A DNA stretch of 11,541 nt from NCBI GenBank assembly GCA_027858355.1, contig JAQICW010000171.1, positions 1 through 11,541 of the forward strand, given 5' to 3'. Origin of the DNA: Desulfobacula sp. Its GTDB lineage: Bacteria; Desulfobacterota; Desulfobacteria; Desulfobacterales; Desulfobacteraceae. Numbering within the stretch: the first letter of the stretch is position 1; every line of letters starts with the position of its first letter. The notes beneath the pieces were generated by a model. The model saw only the letters and a program-made list of their open reading frames with translations. It ran no database searches and was not told where the DNA came from. A program made the translations under genes and the position numbers. Shown here piece after piece: positions 2,466 through 11,479 of this stretch.

Positions 2466-2520
2466 AGACATTTCAGATCTCTCAAGTCAGGTCACTGACA
2501 TCAGATCGCTAGATAAAAAC

Positions 2521-2556
2521 AAGGGCCAGGCATTCAAAATGCCTGGCCCTTATGTT
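2521..2556 (+). terminator. Rho-independent-like terminator after hisD
   Basis: A perfect 14-bp stem (2521-2534 pairing with 2538-2551, arm AAGGGCCAGGCATT) with a 3-nt loop lies 56 nt after the hisD stop. The 3' tail (ATGTTT) has only a short T run, but the GC-rich stem is very strong. The near-perfect symmetry would also work for transcription coming from the right. Confidence 0.75.
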
Positions 2557-2786: not shown

Positions 2787-4064
2787 ATGAGCGTCAAACA
2801 GATTACCAAGATCAGAGCTCGTGAGATTATAGACTGCAGAGGATGGCCCACAGTACAGGCAGACGTTTGGGTGGATGGACGTTTGAGAGGTCGTGCAGAT
2901 GTGCCCTCGGGCCGAAGCACTGGTGGTCATGAAGCCCATGTACTTCTGGACGGTGACCCCAAGCGCTACCTGGGTCTGGGCGTGCTAAAGGCAATTGATC
3001 ATGTTAATGATCTCATCGGTCCGGCTCTGGAAGGGATGGTAGTGACGGATCAACGTAAAATTGATCTGGCCATGATCGGCCTGGATGGAACTCCGAATAA
3101 AAGCAAGTTGGGCGCCAATGCTATATTAGGTGTCTCTCTGGCCGTGGCCCGGGCTGCTGCCGCCATCTGCGATATACCTCTTTACCGCTATATAAATCCC
3201 ACAGCACACGTTCTTCCTGTCCCCCTGATGAACTGTCTCAATGGAGGTCTGCTCACGGCAAATGATCTTGAAATTCAAGAGTTTATTTTTATGCCAGTGG
3301 GGGCTGTCAGTTATAGAGAGGCCCTCAGGATGACCACGGATATAAACGAGCACTTAAGAGAACTTGTGATAAAAAAATATGGTATTCTGGCCACCAATAC
3401 AGGCGATGAAGGTGGCTTTGCCACTCCCATGCGTGGTATCTGGGAGCCTTTTGAGTTCATGTCAAAAGCCGTGGAAATGGCCGGCTACAGTGATGACATA
3501 GTCTATGCCATGGATCTTGCTGCCAATTCATGGTTTGACAAAGAAAAAAATCTCTATGAACTGGACGGCAAACTATATGATCGGGATGCCCTGATTAACC
3601 TTTATAAAGAGGTTTGTGCCAAATATCCAGTGGCTTCCATGGAGGACCCCCTGGAAGAGGAAGATTTTGACGGATTTGCTATTCTGACGGGTGAGCTGGA
3701 TATCCAGATCGTTGGCGATGATCTTTTTGTGACCAATATGAAACGCTTGCGCATGGGCCTGGAAAAAGGAGCTGCCAACGCCATGTTGTTCAAGGTGAAT
3801 CAGATCGGCAGCCTGACCGAGGCTCTGGACTCTGCCGAGTTTGCCTACCGTCACAACTACGGGGTGCAGGTGTCAGAGCGTTCTGGTGAAACCGAAGACC
3901 CCATCATCTCAGATCTTGTGGTTGCCCTGAACAGTGGGCAGATTAAAACCGGCATGCCAATACGGGGTGAACGTACCTCCAAACACAACCGGTTGCTTCA
4001 GATTGAAGAAGAACTTGGAGAGGCAGCCACCTATGCAGGACGTAATTTTCATCGTCCAGGCTGA
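2787..4064 (+). CDS. Divergent enolase-superfamily protein (phosphopyruvate hydratase homologue with altered active site)
   Basis: This 425-residue protein aligns along its whole length with bacterial enolase, with few gaps. Enolase converts 2-phosphoglycerate to PEP. Conserved here (ATG 2787 numbering): Gln164 in IQEF, catalytic Glu208 in GDEGG, Mg ligands Asp243 (AMD), Glu286 (MED) and Asp311 (GDDL), catalytic base Lys336 in KVNQIGS, phosphate-binding Arg365-Ser366, and Lys387 in GQIKTG. Changed: the invariant His of the NGG-x-H loop is Leu156 (NGGLLTAND); the His of SHRSGETED is Glu364 (SERSGETED); the mobile loop reads PSGRSTG, with Arg43 where Ala is usual; and SRGNPT reads CRGWPT. It is therefore probably not the housekeeping enolase and may act on a related 2-phospho acid. 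AAGGAG (2773-2778) is 8 nt before ATG 2787, which makes it a better start than GTG 2784. It leads the catabolic cluster, ahead of a glycerate kinase gene. Confidence 0.85.
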   Translation: MSVKQITKIRAREIIDCRGWPTVQADVWVDGRLRGRADVPSGRSTGGHEAHVLLDGDPKRYLGLGVLKAIDHVNDLIGPALEGMVVTDQRKIDLAMIGLDGTPNKSKLGANAILGVSLAVARAAAAICDIPLYRYINPTAHVLPVPLMNCLNGGLLTANDLEIQEFIFMPVGAVSYREALRMTTDINEHLRELVIKKYGILATNTGDEGGFATPMRGIWEPFEFMSKAVEMAGYSDDIVYAMDLAANSWFDKEKNLYELDGKLYDRDALINLYKEVCAKYPVASMEDPLEEEDFDGFAILTGELDIQIVGDDLFVTNMKRLRMGLEKGAANAMLFKVNQIGSLTEALDSAEFAYRHNYGVQVSERSGETEDPIISDLVVALNSGQIKTGMPIRGERTSKHNRLLQIEEELGEAATYAGRNFHRPG

Positions 4065-4200: not shown

Positions 4201-5580
4201 ATGGCATATATTAAAAACGCATCCCAGCTTCTTGCCCACGGTAACAGGGCAGCCCGGAGGGCAGCCCTTGAAATTATCGAGAGTGGGCTAGCCGGGGCTG
4301 ATCCCTATGAGGCCACCCGCTGCCTTGTGAACAGAAAGGACAACCAGCTTAACATTGGATCAATGACATTGGATTTGAGCTCCTGCCCGCAAATTTTTAT
4401 ATTGGGTGCTGGCAAGGCAACATACCCCATTGCAAAGGCCTTGGAGGAGATCTTAGGCGACCGGATTACAGATGGCATTGTGATCTGCAAATATGGTCAG
4501 GAGGGTACTCTGGAGCATTCCAGAATGCTGCTGGCATCCCATCCCATCCCGGATGAATCGAGTCTGGAAGGTGCCGTGAAAACCCTTGCCCTGGCAAAAA
4601 AGAGCCGGCCAGGGGATCTTATTATCTGCTGTTACACCGGTGGAAGTTCGGCCCTGTTGTCCCTTCCGGCGGGCGACATTACGCTGGATGAAAAAAAACA
4701 GGTTAACAAGCTGCTGCTCTCCTGCGGTGCCAACATTATCGAGATCAACTCCGTTCGTAAACATCTGAGCCGGATAAAGGGCGGCCGCCTGGCTGCAGCA
4801 ATCCACCCCCAGGCGCGTCTGGTGAACTTGACGGTTTCAGATGTGATCGGAGATCCGTTGGATTATATCACCGATCCCACTGTACCCGACACCTCAACCA
4901 TGGCGGATGCAAGAGCGACCCTGACCCGTTACGATCTGTGGGAAAATATACCAGCGACTGCAGCAACATATCTGAAAAATGACGACCCGGACAGAGAGAC
5001 CCCAAAGACAGAAGATTTGAACAATCTATCCTGTCACAACTTTATCCTGGTTCCCGGTGATGCGGCCTGTGTTGCAGCAGCAAAAAAAGCGGAGGCACTT
5101 GGTTTCAGAACCATGATCCTCTCGACCATGCTCGAGGGTGAAAGCCGGGAGCTGGGTCGTACCTTTGCCGCAGTGGGCAATGAAATTGTACAAAACGGCC
5201 GACCCCTGCCGGCGCCCTGTGTAGTTATCGGTGGCGGGGAAACCACCGTAAGGCTGGACACCCATTTCGGCATGGGCGGGCCCAACCAGGAGTTTGCCCT
5301 GGGGGCGGCCTTTGATATCTGCGGCAGGAACCATGTGCTGGTGGCGGGTATAGATTCCGATGGCACAGACGGGCCCACCGACCTTGCCGGCGCTCTTGTT
5401 GATGGCCAGACCCTGCAGCGTGCCGAGGTTGCCGGCCTTGATCTTCGTTCCAGCCTGAAAAATCATAATGTCTCTCAAGCCCTTGAAAAACTAGGTGACT
5501 CCGTGATTACAGGTGCCACCGGTACCAATGTCAACGACCTGAAGCTGCTGCTCGTTATGAATCCCAAAGGTAAATCATAA
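4201..5580 (+). CDS. Class II glycerate 2-kinase (GK-II / MOFRL family)
   Basis: This 459-residue cytoplasmic kinase phosphorylates D-glycerate, or a similar 2-hydroxyacid, with ATP at the 2-position. The N-terminal domain (about residues 10-240) has GAGKA with Lys72, HPIPDES at 114-120, a glycine-rich GGSSALL, NSVRKHLSRIKGGRLA at 183-198 and VSDVIGDP at 212-219. The C-terminal MOFRL domain (about 340-450) has GGGETTVR with the likely catalytic Arg351, GGPNQEFAL, DSDGTDGPTD at 385-394 and a final TGTNVNDL. The length is usual for the family. The frame is open upstream to 4093, but ATG 4201 is chosen because AGAGG (4191-4195) lies 5 nt before it and GNRAARRAALEI matches the usual N-terminus. 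Its product class, 2-phosphoglycerate, is the natural substrate class of the upstream enolase-like enzyme. This family is often misnamed hydroxypyruvate reductase (TtuD). Confidence 0.92.
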   Translation: MAYIKNASQLLAHGNRAARRAALEIIESGLAGADPYEATRCLVNRKDNQLNIGSMTLDLSSCPQIFILGAGKATYPIAKALEEILGDRITDGIVICKYGQEGTLEHSRMLLASHPIPDESSLEGAVKTLALAKKSRPGDLIICCYTGGSSALLSLPAGDITLDEKKQVNKLLLSCGANIIEINSVRKHLSRIKGGRLAAAIHPQARLVNLTVSDVIGDPLDYITDPTVPDTSTMADARATLTRYDLWENIPATAATYLKNDDPDRETPKTEDLNNLSCHNFILVPGDAACVAAAKKAEALGFRTMILSTMLEGESRELGRTFAAVGNEIVQNGRPLPAPCVVIGGGETTVRLDTHFGMGGPNQEFALGAAFDICGRNHVLVAGIDSDGTDGPTDLAGALVDGQTLQRAEVAGLDLRSSLKNHNVSQALEKLGDSVITGATGTNVNDLKLLLVMNPKGKS

Positions 5581-5773: not shown

Positions 5774-7306
5774 ATGACTTTTATACGTATAAAAAATTTT
5801 ATTGATGGCAAATGGGAAGAAGAACCAAATGTTGAACATGTACCATTGTTCAATCCTTCAACCGGAGAGCAGATTGGTGAAGTACCCCTTTCAACGGTAG
5901 ACACTTCTTTACGGGCAGTTGAATCATCTGCCCGGGCTTATGCATTGTGGAAAAAAATGCCGATTTCAAGGCGTATGGGATATATTTTTGCTATGCGAAC
6001 AGCCATGGAAAATCACGCAGAGGAACTTGCCGTATCCATTGCCGTGGACCAGGCCAAACATATCAGTGAAGCAAGAGGTGAAGTAGCACGGGTCATTGAG
6101 CTCATAGAAGCGGCTTGTTCAATCCCCGCCCTGATTCAGGGGGAGACCCTCGATATGATTGCCGGTAACATCAACGGTCGTGTAATACGTCAGCCTTTAG
6201 GGGTTTTTGGCGGTGTTGCCCCCTTTAACTTTCCAGCCCTAGTCTTTGGGTGGTTTATACCCTGTGCCATTGGTGTTGGCAATACCTTTGTTTTTAAACC
6301 GTCTACCCAGTCTCCTCTTTTTATGCAGAGGATGGGAGATATTTTTAATGAAATCAATTTGCCGCCAGGGGTTGTTAATATTATCCACGGCAATCGCAAG
6401 GTTCCTGAAGTCTGGTATAGCCATCCTGCAATTTCCGGTGTCTGCCTTGTAGGGTCAACACCTACTGCCAAAAAAATTGCCGAAGGGTGTGCCCATGGAG
6501 CCAAACGAACAATGCTTTTGGGCGGTGCGAAAAATTATCTCGTTGTTATGGAAGATGCAAATCTTGATGTGTTTATCGAGAACTTCATTCATTCCTGTTA
6601 TGGCTCAGCCGGCCAACGCTGTCTTGCAGGATCAATTGTGGCCATCGTGCCTGAGCTCTACGATAAAGTCATAGATCGCATGATGGAAGCCTCTAAAACC
6701 ATAACAATTGGCGATGCAATGGACTCTGATGTCTATATGGGACCGGTGATTTCAGCCCAGGCAAAAAAGACCATTGAAAAATACATTGAATTGGGTATTG
6801 AGGGGGGGTCCAACCTGATTCTGGATGGCCGTAATCCGGATATAGCTGACAAAAACAAGAATGGATATTTTGTCGGCCCCACTATTTTTACCGATGTCAC
6901 TCCTTGCAGAACCATTGCAAAGGAAGAGATCTTCGGTCCTGTTGTCTCTGTAATGAAAATTGATGGTTTAGATGATGCCCTTGAACTTATCAGGGACCAG
7001 GAGTTTGGCAATGGTGCCTGCATATTTACAGATAACCTTTTTTATGCGGAACGGTTCATTTCGGAAGCAGATGTGGGTATGGTTGGAGTAAATGTAGGCG
7101 TGTGTGCTCCTCATCCCTATCTGCCCTTTGGCGGCATCAAGGATTCACTGCTCGGCACAGACAAGGTTCAGGGTAAAGACGGTATTGATTTTTTCACCCA
7201 GAACAAAGTTGCAACAGTTCGCTTTGTCCCCCCAAAAGGATATAAGACCGAACAGGAAAGAAAAATTTTGCCAGACAGTTCAATAAGATCATGTGTGGCC
7301 CAGTAA
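5774..7306 (+). CDS. mmsA: Methylmalonate/malonate-semialdehyde dehydrogenase-family aldehyde dehydrogenase (CoA-acylating)
   Basis: This 510-residue enzyme belongs to the MmsA/IolA branch of NAD-dependent aldehyde dehydrogenases, which turn (methyl)malonate semialdehyde into propionyl- or acetyl-CoA plus CO2. Visible landmarks are NFIDGKW at 8-14, the oxyanion Asn153 in FNFP, VGSTP at 226-230, and GGAKN at 250-254, where this branch has Asn instead of the general-base Glu of hydrolytic ALDHs. The catalytic Cys283 is in GQRC, KEEIFGPV is at 383-390 and PFGGIKDS at 451-458. Arg106 and Arg282 fall where the family's two carboxylate-binding arginines sit, which favours an aldehyde with a beta-carboxylate or similar anion. 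ATG 5774 is preceded by AGGAG (5758-5762); a TTG at 5744 in the same frame is less likely. It sits between the glycerate kinase and the TRAP receptor, so a role in the same catabolism is inferred. The true substrate is unknown. Confidence 0.9.
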   Translation: MTFIRIKNFIDGKWEEEPNVEHVPLFNPSTGEQIGEVPLSTVDTSLRAVESSARAYALWKKMPISRRMGYIFAMRTAMENHAEELAVSIAVDQAKHISEARGEVARVIELIEAACSIPALIQGETLDMIAGNINGRVIRQPLGVFGGVAPFNFPALVFGWFIPCAIGVGNTFVFKPSTQSPLFMQRMGDIFNEINLPPGVVNIIHGNRKVPEVWYSHPAISGVCLVGSTPTAKKIAEGCAHGAKRTMLLGGAKNYLVVMEDANLDVFIENFIHSCYGSAGQRCLAGSIVAIVPELYDKVIDRMMEASKTITIGDAMDSDVYMGPVISAQAKKTIEKYIELGIEGGSNLILDGRNPDIADKNKNGYFVGPTIFTDVTPCRTIAKEEIFGPVVSVMKIDGLDDALELIRDQEFGNGACIFTDNLFYAERFISEADVGMVGVNVGVCAPHPYLPFGGIKDSLLGTDKVQGKDGIDFFTQNKVATVRFVPPKGYKTEQERKILPDSSIRSCVAQ

Positions 7307-7406: not shown

Positions 7407-8396
7407 ATGAAAAAAGTTTTAAGTATTTTAATTGTTGGTCTGGTTTTAATGGCAATATCGTCCTCACCTGTTTTTGCCGGGGAAAAGAAAATTTGCAAAT
7501 TGGGGCATGTCAACTCACCGGCATCCATTTTTCAATTCGGTGCGTTGGCATTTAAAGAAGCTGTGGAAAAAGAGCTTCCCGACTGGACGATTGAAGTTTA
7601 TCCAGCCGGCGGTCTTGGCGGAACCCTGGCCATGATCCAGGGCATGACTCTGGGTACGGTGGATATCTACACTGAATTCATCAGTGTCCTGGCCGACCTG
7701 GTTCCGGAATATAAAGTTTTTGCTGTTCATTATAAGTTTGATTCAGTAGGTGAATACGAGTTGTTCATGAATTCCGCTACCTTTGCCTCGATGAACGAGA
7801 AAATGATCAAAAAGAATGGTATTACCAATATCGGTAACATGAGTGCCGGAAGCATCTACAACCATTTCAGTAACAAGGCGATGTATACGATCAGTGACGC
7901 CAAGGGTGTGATTAACCGTGTGGCCCAGATGGCCCCGCTGGTACAGTGCTGGAAGGCCTATGGCGCAAAACCGACGTCCATGGACTGGGGTGAGATCTAT
8001 ACCAGCCTTCAGACCGGGGTCATCACCTCCATTGACAATCCCATACTTGACATGTTCGATGAAAAATTTCATGAGGCTGTCAAGTATGTCAATATGACAA
8101 ATAACCTTTATAATATGATCTCCTACAACACCAGCATGGCCTTCTGGAAAACCCTGAATGACAAGGAGAAGGATGTATTCAGAAGAGCCGTCAGAGTTGC
8201 CAGTATTAAAGGCCAGATGGAAGTGGAAAGACGTCTTGCCGGTGTCAAGGCAGAACTGAAAAGCAAAAATATCAAAACCATCCAGACTGACGTGTCTGGT
8301 TTCAAAAAAGCGGTCCAGGACAATATTAACACCATTCTTGCAAACGATAAGGATGCGATTGCTGTTTACAAAAAAATCATGGCAAAGGATTACTAA
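7407..8396 (+). CDS. dctP: TRAP transporter solute-binding protein DctP
   Basis: This 329-residue periplasmic receptor captures a small organic acid and delivers it to the DctQM membrane pair. A Sec signal peptide covers residues 1-24 (Lys-Lys, hydrophobic core, cleavage likely after VFA). The mature part shows the DctP fold: HVNSPAS near residue 35, FxxxVEKELP, YPAGGLGG near 66-73, and the segment NRVAQM with Arg171, the position of the family's carboxylate-binding arginine. It continues YGAKPTSMDWGEIYTSLQTG and IDNP. The usual GxxxxR ladder before this segment is replaced by MSAGSIYNHF, so the binding pocket may differ from that of C4-dicarboxylate receptors. ATG 7407 has AAAAGGAG just upstream. 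A terminator-like hairpin follows the gene, which would favour excess receptor over permease. The ligand is unknown; the neighbours suggest a hydroxyacid. Confidence 0.92.
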   Translation: MKKVLSILIVGLVLMAISSSPVFAGEKKICKLGHVNSPASIFQFGALAFKEAVEKELPDWTIEVYPAGGLGGTLAMIQGMTLGTVDIYTEFISVLADLVPEYKVFAVHYKFDSVGEYELFMNSATFASMNEKMIKKNGITNIGNMSAGSIYNHFSNKAMYTISDAKGVINRVAQMAPLVQCWKAYGAKPTSMDWGEIYTSLQTGVITSIDNPILDMFDEKFHEAVKYVNMTNNLYNMISYNTSMAFWKTLNDKEKDVFRRAVRVASIKGQMEVERRLAGVKAELKSKNIKTIQTDVSGFKKAVQDNINTILANDKDAIAVYKKIMAKDY

Positions 8397-8432
8397 CCCA
8401 AAGTATCTGCTAATGTAGACAACTTATAATTA

Positions 8433-8501
8433 CAGGCTTCCTGCCAGGGCTCAGGGCTCTATGGCCCAGAGCTCTTGCAGGAACCTGCCGGTTATTTTTT
8501 T
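8433..8501 (+). terminator. Terminator/attenuator between dctP and dctQ
   Basis: A long imperfect hairpin starts with CAGGCTTCCTGCC (8433-8445) and pairs with TGCAGGAACCTG (8476-8487), with one bulged C. Inner arms AGGGCTC and GAGCTCT add pairs. After the stem, GGTTA leads into seven T residues (8495-8501). This fits a Rho-independent terminator, and inside the transporter operon it probably acts as a partial terminator. Confidence 0.75.
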
Positions 8502-8570
8502 CAAAGATAATCAGCAGTTCCGGAAAAAACAGGTATGGTTGCCTTTACTTAAAAAAAATGGGAGACCCAG

Positions 8571-9074
8571 ATGAATATCGTTCAGGTTTCAGATAAAATA
8601 CTTGATACCATTAATACTTTTATGGAATACCTGATGGGTATTTTGTTTCTCTCCCTGGTAGTCATTACATTCCAGGAGGTGCTTCGGCGGTATTTGCTTA
8701 ATGACCCGACCCACTGGGCCTCGGAAGCGAGTCGATTTCTTCTGATATGGATGACATTTACAGGGGCTTGCATCGTTACTCGGCTTGTCGCTCATCTCAC
8801 CATGGGATTTACCATCCATAGGTTTGTTAATAAATCCATTAGTAGATTTATCAAGGTATTCATTTCTGCGATTGCCGCAGTCAGCATGATCGTTCTGACG
8901 TATTACAGCGGGAAAGTAACACTTCTGGCCGGATATCGACCTGCCCCCATGACGGGTATTCACATGTACTACGTCTGGTCGGCACTTCCCTTTAACGGTG
9001 CCATCATGTCCCTGTATATGATCGCAGAGACGGTTAAACATATATTTGATAAAGAAGAGGAGGTGAGTCCGTGA
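8571..9074 (+). CDS. dctQ: TRAP transporter small membrane subunit DctQ
   Basis: This 167-residue inner-membrane protein has four predicted membrane spans (about residues 16-37, 54-72, 92-113 and 131-153). It carries the DctQ signature between spans 1 and 2: FQEVLRRYLLNDPTHWASEA followed by RFLLIWMTFTGA. DctQ partners DctM and is needed for Na+-driven uptake of the DctP-bound solute. ATG 8571 is preceded by GGGAG (8560-8564). Its stop overlaps the dctM start (GTGA), which indicates translational coupling. It lies 174 nt after dctP, across a terminator-like hairpin. No other promoter was evident in that gap. Confidence 0.92.
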   Translation: MNIVQVSDKILDTINTFMEYLMGILFLSLVVITFQEVLRRYLLNDPTHWASEASRFLLIWMTFTGACIVTRLVAHLTMGFTIHRFVNKSISRFIKVFISAIAAVSMIVLTYYSGKVTLLAGYRPAPMTGIHMYYVWSALPFNGAIMSLYMIAETVKHIFDKEEEVSP

Positions 9075-10351
9075 TTTATATTTTTATCGCCATGTTTATC
9101 TTCTTCTTTTTCGGTATGCCCATCGCCTTTGGTATATTATCCAGCACCATCTATTACCTCCTCTTTTCAGGGCAATCCCGGGAATTACTAGCTTTTTCCA
9201 CCCGGGTGATATCTGCCTCAGACTCTTACGTTCTTTTAGCCGTCCCTTTTTTCATGCTGGCAGCTGAACTGATGAACGAAGCTAAAATAACCGACCGGAT
9301 TTTTTCTTTTGCCAGATCCCTGGTGGGGCACATCCCTGGAGGGTTGGGCCATGTCAACATTGTCGCCAGTATGATCTTTGCCGGGATGTCCGGCTCTGGA
9401 CTGGCCGATACGGCCGGTTTGGGAAAAGTAGAAATTAAAGCTATGAAGGAAGGGGGGTATGACCCGGCCTTCAGTGCTGCAGTAACAGCATCTTCAGCTA
9501 TTATCGGCCCCATCATACCACCCAGTATCTGTATGGTAGTGGGCGCAGTAGTGACTAACACCTCTGTGGGCCGGATGCTGGTGGGTGGTATTATCCCCGG
9601 CCTCATGATGGGAATCGGCCTCATGATGGTAGTTTATTTTCTATCGAAAAAAAGAGGTTATCCAAAAGCACCACGGGCGACCGGGAAAGAGATTTGGAAG
9701 CAATTGACTGCTACAGGACCTGCCCTTCTGACACCGCTTATTCTGGTCGGCGGTATTCTTTCCGGTGTTTTTACTCCCACGGAGGCAGCTGCAGTGGCTT
9801 GTATTTATGCCATGATTCTGGCAATGGTTTTTTATAAGGCCTTTGGTTTAAAAAGGTTATTCCGCATTTTTATCAATGTCGGTACTGGTACCGGTGCACT
9901 GCTCTTTGTTATGTCCGCGGCAGCAGCCCTGGGTACCCTGGCTTCCCGGGCTCAAGTACCCCAAAACCTGATGAAGCTGGTCATGTCCATAACCAGCAGT
10001 CCGACGGTGACCATATTTATTATTGTTGGTGTTCTTATTCTGCTGGGCATGATTATGGAAGATCTGTCCCTGCTGGTGATTATGGGGCCGTTGCTGCTTC
10101 CTGTGGTTCTCAAGCTTGGAATCAACCCGGTTCACTTTGGAGTGATCATGGTACTGACACTTCAACTGGCCATGATTACACCACCGGTGGGTATGGGATT
10201 CTATATTACCTGCCACCTGGCCCAGGTGGATGCGGTGTCCTACTCTAAAGAGATTATCTGGTTTGTATTGATTCTTGTTGTCGTTGTAATTTTGATGTGC
10301 TTGATTCCGTCTCTGGTGACATTTCTGCCGGATCTGTTCTTTGGAAAGTGA
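9071..10351 (+). CDS. dctM: TRAP transporter large permease subunit DctM
   Basis: This 426-residue polytopic membrane protein has the normal DctM length and many hydrophobic spans. Family blocks include FFFGMPIAFGIL near the N-terminus, GHIPGGLGHVNIVASMIFAGMSGSG around residues 78-102, GPIIPPSICMVVGA near 142-155 and PLILVGGILSGVFTPTEAAA near 217-236. The C-terminal part includes the MITPPVGMGFYITC segment. DctM forms the transport pathway and couples import to the Na+ gradient. The GTG start at 9071 overlaps the dctQ stop and has AGGAGG (9058-9063) at 7 nt. The P-Q-M order is the common DctPQM arrangement with separate Q and M. A hairpin follows the gene. Confidence 0.95.
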   Translation: MIYIFIAMFIFFFFGMPIAFGILSSTIYYLLFSGQSRELLAFSTRVISASDSYVLLAVPFFMLAAELMNEAKITDRIFSFARSLVGHIPGGLGHVNIVASMIFAGMSGSGLADTAGLGKVEIKAMKEGGYDPAFSAAVTASSAIIGPIIPPSICMVVGAVVTNTSVGRMLVGGIIPGLMMGIGLMMVVYFLSKKRGYPKAPRATGKEIWKQLTATGPALLTPLILVGGILSGVFTPTEAAAVACIYAMILAMVFYKAFGLKRLFRIFINVGTGTGALLFVMSAAAALGTLASRAQVPQNLMKLVMSITSSPTVTIFIIVGVLILLGMIMEDLSLLVIMGPLLLPVVLKLGINPVHFGVIMVLTLQLAMITPPVGMGFYITCHLAQVDAVSYSKEIIWFVLILVVVVILMCLIPSLVTFLPDLFFGK

Positions 10352-10917: not shown

Positions 10918-11104
10918 GCTTGTGCAGGACCTTTTATTTTTGAATAATGCACCGGAACTCTCTGTCCGCATCCAGATTTGAGGTACTCTCAGGCATTCAG
11001 ATCCCGGTATAAACCAAGGGCTTCATTGTCATCCGGGCTTCACACAAACCATTACTGGTGATGCATGCCGAACTGGAAACCTGCTGGTAATACAGCAGGT
11101 TGGG
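10918..11104 (+). other. Gap after uspA with no intact gene; in-frame unrecognised stretch leading into the hisD fragment
   Basis: No complete gene or clear terminator is seen here. From the TGA at 10979-10981 the reading frame stays open into the hisD fragment, reading through HPGFTQTITGDACRTGNL and VIQQVG before the HisD-like residues begin. This looks like a piece of another coding sequence joined to the fragment, but I do not recognise it. There is no start codon with a good ribosome-binding site. Confidence 0.35.
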
Positions 11105-11407
11105 GCAGAACCCGATGTCATGGCCTTGTCCATCCTTGTTACTGACTCCAGAGACCTGGCCCAAAAAACCATTTCAGCCCTGGAAAAACAGATATCTGAG
11201 CTTTCACGACAGAATATTGCCAGGGCCTCCATTGATAATTTCGGGACCATACTGCTGGTGCCGGACATTGAAACCGGGATTGCCCTTTCCAACCGCCTGG
11301 CCCCGGAACATCTTGAGCTCATCGTAAAAAATCCCTTTGATTATATTGACCAGATCCGCAATGCCGGAGCCCTGTTCCTAGGGTCCTATACCCCTGAACC
11401 CATGGGA
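11105..11407 (+). pseudogene. hisD: Internal hisD fragment (right copy of the direct repeat)
   Basis: About 101 codons match residues 263-363 of the intact hisD at 1170-2465, in the same reading frame and orientation, about 93% identical in bases by eye. It lacks the first 262 residues and everything from Asp364 on, so it cannot fold as HisD. The zinc ligand His265 of the intact copy is Pro here (CAC to CCC), although the catalytic pair APEHLE remains. Most differences are silent or conservative, which suggests divergence under selection in a functional relative before truncation. The left boundary is at 11104-11105 and the right boundary at 11407-11408. Confidence 0.88.
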
Positions 11408-11479
11408 TTTATATCCTTTATACTCTCTAAAAAAGGCCAGGAACTTGTAAAAGACGCTGGCTCCATACCTCTTTTTTAA
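11408..11479 (+). pseudogene. C-terminal tail of a phosphate/tungstate-type ABC substrate-binding protein, fused to the hisD fragment
   Basis: Directly after the hisD homology ends, the same frame reads FISFILSKKGQELVKDAG, then SIPLF and TAA (11477-11479). This pattern (phi-x-phi-phi-LS-x-x-GQ-x-phi-V-x-x-x-G-x-PL) is typical of the end of periplasmic binding proteins of the PstS/TupA kind. Only about 23 codons are present, so it is the remnant of a gene whose front was replaced. After it, 11480-11541 holds AAAGGAG near 11519-11525, possibly the ribosome-binding site of a gene beyond the window. Confidence 0.55.

What the first reader, a model, noticed from the sequence alone, without database searches (positions are those of the whole stretch)
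2787..4064. Enolase homologue with both active-site histidines replaced and an Arg in the mobile loop
Seen: the catalytic Lys336 and Glu208, three Mg ligands and the phosphate-binding Arg365-Ser366 are all kept. The His in the NGG-x-H loop is Leu156, the His of SHRSGETED is Glu364, and the Ser loop reads PSGRSTG with Arg43. Known: in enolase these two His residues line the substrate's hydroxymethyl side and the mobile loop closes over Mg. Inference: the phosphoester end is bound as usual but the leaving-group end is rebuilt, so the enzyme may dehydrate, or eliminate another group from, a different 2-phospho acid. The new Arg could meet an extra negative charge.
Basis: partly seen in the sequence, partly recalled or inferred. 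Interest (0 to 1): 0.8.

Follow-up and report, generated by a model that had tools for sequence, protein, structure and literature searches.

The report
Enolase relative remade as ammonia-lyase (predicted)
A rare relative of the sugar-burning enzyme enolase, altered at the same two active-site positions and usually encoded near a matching altered kinase, probably strips ammonia from a phosphorylated amino-hydroxy acid to make phosphoenolpyruvate, which would be a new pathway; no assay has been done.

Summary
The gene at 2787-4064 encodes an enolase-fold protein that keeps the catalytic Lys, both Glu, the Mg ligands and Arg-Ser, but has Leu156, Glu364 and Arg43 where enolases have His, His and Ala. 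It is a family: Arg43 356, Leu156 351 (Ile 9) and Glu364 359 of 360 rows, against Ala/His/His in 11 of 11 canonical enolases. 10 of 11 host genomes also hold an ordinary enolase. In 17 loci, a MOFRL glycerate-2-kinase paralogue lies next to it or one gene away in 15, a LarA-type 2-hydroxy-acid racemase near it in 9, a ureohydrolase or AGAT-like amidinotransferase in 7, pyruvate kinase in 2; none was detected at 10 canonical-enolase loci. The kinases have their own diagnostic changes, including a new Asp225. Best explanation: the kinase makes 2-phospho-D-isoserine (3-amino-2-phosphopropanoate) and this enzyme expels ammonia, giving PEP. Substrate and reaction are inferred. My literature searches showed nothing on it.

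The parts
2787..4064 (+). enolase-like lyase, 425 aa (predicted 2-phosphoisoserine ammonia-lyase)
2913..2915 (+). Arg43 codon, mobile loop PSGRSTG (Ala in enolases)
   Evidence: 356 of 360 family rows
3252..3254 (+). Leu156 codon (His in enolases; yeast His159, numbering recalled)
   Evidence: Leu 351 and Ile 9 of 360 rows
3876..3878 (+). Glu364 codon (His in enolases; yeast His373, numbering recalled)
   Evidence: Glu 359 and Asp 1 of 360 rows
4201..5580 (+). DUF4147/MOFRL kinase paralogue, predicted D-isoserine 2-kinase (TGGSS and YITDPT motifs)
4645..4647 (+). kinase Ser149 codon (usually Gly in ordinary paralogues)
   Evidence: Ser 17 of 17 cluster-type; ordinary Gly 8, Ala 1, Ser 1 of 10
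4873..4875 (+). kinase Asp225 codon (usually Gly in ordinary paralogues)
   Evidence: Asp 16 and Gly 1 of 17 cluster-type; ordinary Gly 9, Thr 1 of 10
5774..7306 (+). aldehyde dehydrogenase close to the methylmalonate-semialdehyde type; role in the pathway unclear
   Evidence: 447.7 bits, cut-off 448.5
7407..10351 (+). TRAP transporter DctP, DctQ, DctM: possible importer of the substrate
   Evidence: role inferred from position
2519..2553 (.). terminator-like hairpin between hisD and the enolase-like gene, taken as the start of the unit
   Evidence: terminator-like sites in the region are no more frequent than in shuffles, 5 found and 5.1 expected, but this one has 14-16 pairs

Best explanation
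The protein is an enolase-fold beta-eliminating lyase that works on 2-phospho-3-aminopropanoate (2-phospho-D-isoserine) and releases ammonia, giving phosphoenolpyruvate. Proposed steps: (1) isoserine is taken up, or freed from a 3-guanidino- or 3-ureido-2-hydroxypropanoate by a ureohydrolase, amidinotransferase or amidase [inferred]; (2) a LarA-type racemase brings it to the D form in those hosts that have one [inferred]; (3) the linked MOFRL kinase phosphorylates the 2-OH [family shown, substrate inferred]; (4) the enolase-like protein, using the kept Lys336 base, Mg sites and phosphate ligands, takes the C2 proton and expels NH3 from C3; Glu364, with Glu165 and Glu208, holds the ammonium where enolase has its histidine by the leaving water [residues shown, mechanism inferred, role of the enolase His recalled]; (5) pyruvate kinase returns the ATP, so isoserine becomes pyruvate plus ammonia at no net ATP cost [pyruvate kinase gene shown in two enteric loci]. 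In enolase a hydroxide must be protonated to leave; an ammonium leaves already protonated, so losing the histidines and gaining a carboxylate makes chemical sense.
For: Fixed Glu364/Leu156/Arg43 with the other catalytic residues intact. A second, ordinary enolase in 10 of 11 genomes. A 2-hydroxy-acid 2-kinase paralogue next to it or one gene away in 15 of 17 loci (one partial); the two exceptions, G004 and G1477, hold kinases of this type on other contigs. These kinases differ from ordinary paralogues at conserved motifs and gain an Asp. A homologue of the lactate racemase family in 9 of 17 loci (one cut by a contig end), in both deep clades, with LarC- and LarE-like genes in three; the three full-length ones scanned pass Pfam Lar_N. 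Ureohydrolase in 5 of 17; the one searched (L008) scores 436 bits to 3-guanidinopropionase against 316 to guanidinobutyrase, and those of L006, L007 and L052 are 70-77% identical to it. AGAT-like amidinotransferase in 2 of 17. Pyruvate kinase in the Salmonella locus (646 bits to solved pyruvate kinase 6k0k) and, 90% identical, in Citrobacter, so the product there is plausibly PEP itself. None of these detected near 10 canonical enolases (Fisher p 8e-6 for the kinase, 0.005 for LarA, 0.02 for ureohydrolase or AGAT). Precedent: 3-methylaspartate ammonia-lyase, an enolase-superfamily enzyme, eliminates ammonia after proton abstraction by Lys (PMC7241714, passages). LarA homologues racemise small 2-hydroxy acids including glycerate (PMC11770544, passages).
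Against: No assay and no substrate-bound structure. The amine identity rests on neighbours present in only 7 of 17 loci, plus the acidic residues. The enteric loci have no racemase hit and carry a D-Ala-D-Ala-ligase-like gene that the pathway does not explain. The window itself has no racemase, ureohydrolase or amidinotransferase hit. LarA homologues also racemise glycerate, so their presence does not by itself exclude glycerate. L004 carries a galactarate-dehydratase-like gene, a family that, as recalled, includes a sulfolactate sulfo-lyase subunit. The place of kinase Asp225 relative to the substrate was not tested, and one cluster-type kinase (L079) has Gly there. The neighbour statistics treat related loci as independent; with three near-duplicate loci collapsed, p is 3e-5, 0.01 and 0.02. 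Some control stretches are short (5.9-9.5 kb), and the table used E 1e-12, so weak relatives may be missed.
Confidence: 0.52

Rival explanations
1. Same logic, another nitrogen leaving group: a methylated amine or the whole guanidino/ureido group is eliminated from the corresponding 2-phospho acid, again giving PEP.
For: MTTB-type methyltransferase genes at L010 and L055, a UROD/MtaA-like gene in the window, guanidino or amidino enzymes in 7 of 17 loci.
Against: A 3-guanidinopropionase-like enzyme would cut the guanidino group to an amine before the kinase; the UROD-like gene lies before a terminator-like hairpin; MTTB was found in 2 of 17 loci only.
Confidence: 0.15
2. It is still a dehydratase, for 2-phosphoglycerate or a larger 2-phospho sugar acid, with a rearranged acid catalyst.
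For: Overall enolase sequence and fold; glycerate-kinase paralogue near it; LarA homologues can racemise glycerate (PMC11770544, passages).
Against: Both His of enolase are replaced in 360 of 360 rows, and an ordinary enolase is already present in 10 of 11 genomes; guanidino enzymes would be unexplained; the kinase also departs from the motifs of ordinary paralogues.
Confidence: 0.15
3. It eliminates an anionic group, e.g. sulfite from 2-phospho-3-sulfolactate (the reverse of the phosphosulfolactate synthase reaction, recalled), with Arg43 and Lys155 meeting the anion.
For: Two new basic residues (Arg43 and, in 267 of 360 rows, Lys155, though Lys155 also occurs in 3 of 11 canonical enolases); several hosts are labelled Deltaproteobacteria or Desulfobacterales; galactarate-dehydratase-like gene in L004.
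Against: The new residue at the His373 position is Glu in 359 of 360 rows; the kinase gained an Asp; the window's HisD is closer to true histidinol dehydrogenase (356 bits) than to DHPS/sulfopropanediol dehydrogenases (207 bits or less). Apart from the L004 gene I recognised no sulfonate gene when reading the loci by eye, but I made no systematic search for one.
Confidence: 0.08
4. It runs the other way and makes 2-phosphoisoserine from PEP and ammonia for biosynthesis.
For: Lyases are reversible.
Against: Carriers, racemase, kinase and regulators surround it; I recognised no biosynthetic cluster by eye.
Confidence: 0.05
5. Inactive enolase copy with a regulatory or binding role.
For: Two histidines lost.
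Against: The ten metal, base and phosphate residues checked are 360 of 360 conserved, and it is kept with a specialised kinase.
Confidence: 0.05

Closest known systems
Enolase (phosphopyruvate hydratase), nearest solved: Methanocaldococcus jannaschii MJ0232, 2pa6
   Different: His to Leu156, His to Glu364, Ala to Arg43; second copy beside the ordinary enolase; kinase and racemase neighbours
3-Methylaspartate ammonia-lyase (enolase superfamily)
   Same: Mg-dependent Lys proton abstraction and ammonia elimination (PMC7241714, passages): what this protein is proposed to work like
   Different: no such model among the NCBIfam matches; no phosphate ester in its substrate (recalled)
Carboxyphosphonoenolpyruvate synthase (bialaphos pathway enolase paralogue)
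   Same: an enolase paralogue recruited to a different phospho substrate (recalled)
   Different: no sequence was on hand to compare; phosphonate biosynthesis, not catabolism (recalled)
D-glycerate 2-kinase of DUF4147/MOFRL type (1x3l PH0495; 2b8n)
   Same: sequence family of the neighbouring kinase
   Different: TGGSS for SGGGS and YITDPT for ISGPT in the cluster-type kinases

Membership tests
Enolase (phosphopyruvate hydratase) | sequence model TIGR01060 above its cut-off | tested here: met
   519.9 bits, cut-off 300
Enolase (phosphopyruvate hydratase) | enolase fold | tested here: met
Enolase (phosphopyruvate hydratase) | catalytic Lys pair, two Glu, three Mg ligands, Arg-Ser | tested here: met
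   360 of 360 rows
Enolase (phosphopyruvate hydratase) | active-site His of the NGGxH loop and of SHRSGETED | tested here: not met
   Leu/Ile 360 of 360 and Glu/Asp 360 of 360, against His 11 of 11 canonical
Enolase (phosphopyruvate hydratase) | is the cell's glycolytic enolase | tested here: inconclusive
   10 of 11 relatives' genomes hold a canonical enolase as well, 1 (a MAG) showed none; the window's own genome is not held
Enolase (phosphopyruvate hydratase) | turns 2-phosphoglycerate into PEP | not testable with these tools
   needs an assay
3-Methylaspartate ammonia-lyase | matches that family by sequence | tested here: inconclusive
   no such model among the three NCBIfam matches; whether the library holds one was not checked
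Carboxyphosphonoenolpyruvate synthase | shared active-site replacements | not tested
   no sequence of it was fetched
D-glycerate 2-kinase (neighbour, DUF4147/MOFRL) | DUF4147 and MOFRL domains | tested here: met
   229.7 and 108.1 bits
D-glycerate 2-kinase (neighbour, DUF4147/MOFRL) | SGGGS and SGPT motifs of ordinary paralogues | tested here: not met
   Ser149 17 of 17 and Asp225 16 of 17 in the cluster type; Gly 8 of 10 and 9 of 10 in the others

The most novel reading that the evidence does not exclude
Enolase itself has been re-evolved into a PEP-forming ammonia-lyase, in a widely scattered but rare ATP-neutral cycle (kinase, lyase, pyruvate kinase) that deaminates a beta-amino-alpha-hydroxy acid which pyridoxal enzymes of the serine dehydratase kind cannot treat, because it has no alpha-amino group; the same steps, with a ureohydrolase, amidinotransferase or amidase in front, also serve guanidino and ureido versions of that acid.
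Probability: 0.5. Interest if true: 0.82.

Novelty: new variant of a known kind. Interest (0 to 1): 0.7.

Why it matters
Enolase is one of the most conserved enzymes and is annotated automatically; where a source names members of this family, it calls them enolase or phosphopyruvate hydratase. If the reading holds, it gives a new enzyme reaction, a new catabolic route for isoserine-type compounds, a natural experiment on how enolase's leaving-group specificity is set by a few residues, and a warning for genome-based metabolic models. It also suggests a function for one LarA subgroup and one MOFRL kinase subgroup.

Tried and rejected
Sulfolactate idea (first thought, from the HisD neighbour): the window's HisD scores higher to true histidinol dehydrogenases than to DHPS/sulfopropanediol dehydrogenases, and the new Glu argues against it; kept as a rival. 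A viral-contig scan found no relative. In E. coli, 753 of 5426 genomes had some match to the Salmonella cluster stretch, 0 a place covering 80% of it; the 15 records listed of 775 were matches to transposase regions (14 IS66, one IS630 with a DUF262 gene), the rest were not seen. Sampling of genomes at strict E-values found the family rarely: 1 of 295, 1 of 6, 4 of 242, 1 of 61, 2 of 245, 2 of 16, 1 of 398, 2 of 336 and 1 of 327 genomes, the centre genome included each time; three new genomes came from this (G796, G855, G1477). A literature search for H159/H373 enolase mutants returned nothing in the held library, so the roles of these His are recalled. Bialaphos search: one review in the listing, not opened. 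A sponge metabolomics paper held 'isoserine' only in a reference title (PMC8805237, passage). L011-L013 keep both His and were not treated as family loci: L013 is one of the 11 canonical rows; L011 and L012 were used beside the canonical rows in the alignment and the tree. L014 holds only an internally deleted copy near a contig end; it is counted in the 17 loci (partial kinase), not in the 360 rows. L068 was dropped from the kinase table because the script found no matching long open frame there. The ORF listing was cut, and the missing loci were read.

Full report
What is there. The window carries, on the + strand, a UROD/MtaA-like gene (2-1153, open at the window's start), hisD (1170-2465), a terminator-like hairpin (2519-2553), then the enolase-like gene (2787-4064), a DUF4147/MOFRL kinase (4201-5580), an aldehyde dehydrogenase (5774-7306), a TRAP transporter (7407-10351), a universal stress protein and a fragment of a second hisD. 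The window looks like one metagenome contig: the database holds its protein on one contig of 11541 bases, and no whole genome is held for it.

One old family. In a quick tree the 31 family rows form one side of a branch (SH-aLRT 99) against 13 canonical and archaeal rows, with two deep clades: Proteobacteria/Deltaproteobacteria-type, and Chloroflexota/Bathyarchaeota-type (names). The tool warned of long branches among the canonical rows (L012 above all). The second clade also has Val for Asp207 (118 rows). Of 11 host genomes searched, 10 hold a canonical enolase too; in G003, a MAG, only the family member was found. One of the 11 (G011) holds only the deleted family copy of L014.

The neighbours. 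In 17 loci (window, L001-L010, L014, L037, L038, L051, L052, L055) a tblastn table at E 1e-12 gives: MOFRL kinase in 15 (L014 partial; next to the enolase-like gene, or one carrier gene away in the two enteric loci); LarA homologue in 9 (L004 cut by the contig end); ureohydrolase in 5; AGAT-like amidinotransferase in 2; pyruvate kinase in 2. Three LarA homologues scanned match Pfam Lar_N above its cut-off (36.1, 41.8 and 208.9 bits against 23.3); L008 also carries a nickel-insertion LarC and an AIRC-domain LarB-like gene; its LarE-like gene had no Pfam match and is named from its place and my reading. The L008 ureohydrolase is nearest to 3-guanidinopropionase among solved structures (436 bits; guanidinobutyrase 316); those of L006, L007 and L052 are 70-77% identical to it, while that of L055 is distant (28-29%). 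The amidinotransferases are nearest to L-arginine:glycine amidinotransferase, with the HC motif around the catalytic Cys kept in the alignment (catalytic assignment recalled). In L001 a carbon-nitrogen hydrolase, below the cut-offs of nitrilase and N-carbamoylputrescine-amidase models, precedes the pair; in Paraburkholderia a D-amino-acid-dehydrogenase-like flavoprotein, RidA and a hydroxypyruvate-reductase-like enzyme lie a few genes on, which could make a 2-hydroxy acid from an amino acid. In Citrobacter and on a Salmonella plasmid the unit is lyase, MFS carrier, kinase, Ddl-like, GntR, pyruvate kinase. The Salmonella pyruvate kinase is close to a solved one. As a control, in 10 stretches of 5.9-19.9 kb around canonical enolases no kinase, LarA, ureohydrolase, amidinotransferase or pyruvate kinase was detected; one TRAP DctM and one IclR match were. 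Fisher p values are (8e-6, 0.005, 0.02); related loci are not independent, and with three near-duplicate loci collapsed the values are 3e-5, 0.01 and 0.02.

The kinase was remade as well. A DUF4147 search in 13 host genomes gave cluster-type and ordinary paralogues. Against 10 ordinary ones, the 17 cluster-type kinases have Ser149 (17 of 17) where the others have Gly 8, Ala 1, Ser 1, and Asp225 (16 of 17, Gly in L079) where the others have Gly 9, Thr 1; L090 is the one with Ser and Thr among the others. I moved three kinases (L079, L080, L089; 55-56% identical to the window's) to the cluster type after a first pass in which they stood with the others. They belong to G004 and G1477, the two genomes whose enolase-like gene has no kinase in its locus; the G004 locus ends with its contig, so true linkage there is unknown. 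A new acidic residue in each of two consecutive enzymes is what an added ammonium group on the substrate would call for; that Asp225 touches the substrate is not shown.

Putting it together. A 2-hydroxy acid that needs racemising in some hosts, is related to a guanidino compound like guanidinopropionate, is phosphorylated on the 2-OH, and yields a product that pyruvate kinase can use: the simplest compound is isoserine, 3-amino-2-hydroxypropanoate, with PEP and ammonia as products. Enolase-superfamily precedent for ammonia elimination exists in 3-methylaspartate ammonia-lyase (PMC7241714, passages). A PLP lyase for the phosphonate analogue of isoserine is known and showed virtually no activity on isoserine (PMC8154272, passages), so that enzyme does not cover isoserine.

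What is in print. Searches for sulfolactate with enolase, phosphosulfolactate with PEP, isoserine with catabolism and kinase, enolase with lactate racemase and glycerate kinase, isoserine with ammonia-lyase, and guanidinolactate or phosphoisoserine terms listed nothing that I recognised as this family (listings and abstract starts seen; passages of two of the listed papers read). Three LarA papers hold no 'isoserine', 'enolase' or 'guanidino' in their main text (PMC11770544, PMC7583248, PMC12611868; term counts and passages). The library holds only open papers, and supplements were not searched, so absence elsewhere is not shown.

Verdict. The best reading is a PEP-forming ammonia-lyase for 2-phosphoisoserine (0.52), with any nitrogen leaving group at about 0.67 in sum.

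Noticed in passing
window 11104-11414: A stretch 92% identical over 312 aligned positions to hisD 1955-2266, open at both ends into other sequence and ending in a frame that reads like the tail of a solute-binding protein; a recombined copy or an assembly join.
   Followed up: partly
L037:16233-17138 and L005:14233-15138: A D-Ala-D-Ala-ligase-like gene sits between the kinase and the regulator in the enteric loci; the proposed pathway gives it no job.
   Followed up: partly
L002, L007, L008 (PuuE-like); L006, L052 (cyclase family PF04199): Hydrolase types known to open cyclic amides (recalled) recur at five loci, as if the substrate could arrive as a cyclic compound.
   Followed up: partly
family clade B (L009, L051 and the 118 rows with Val207): GDEGG is GVEGG, and 104 of 360 rows have Gln for Glu368 (SGQTED, as in L009): this branch may take a somewhat different substrate.
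   Followed up: no
L014:5732-6175: Spirochaetales contig with an internally deleted copy of the enolase-like gene and a partial kinase near the contig end.
   Followed up: no
L010 and L055: MTTB-type methyltransferase genes near the unit; may be chance in such anaerobes.
   Followed up: no
genomes G004 and G1477: Cluster-type kinases (L079, L089, L080) lie on other contigs than the enolase-like gene; their own neighbours were not read.
   Followed up: no
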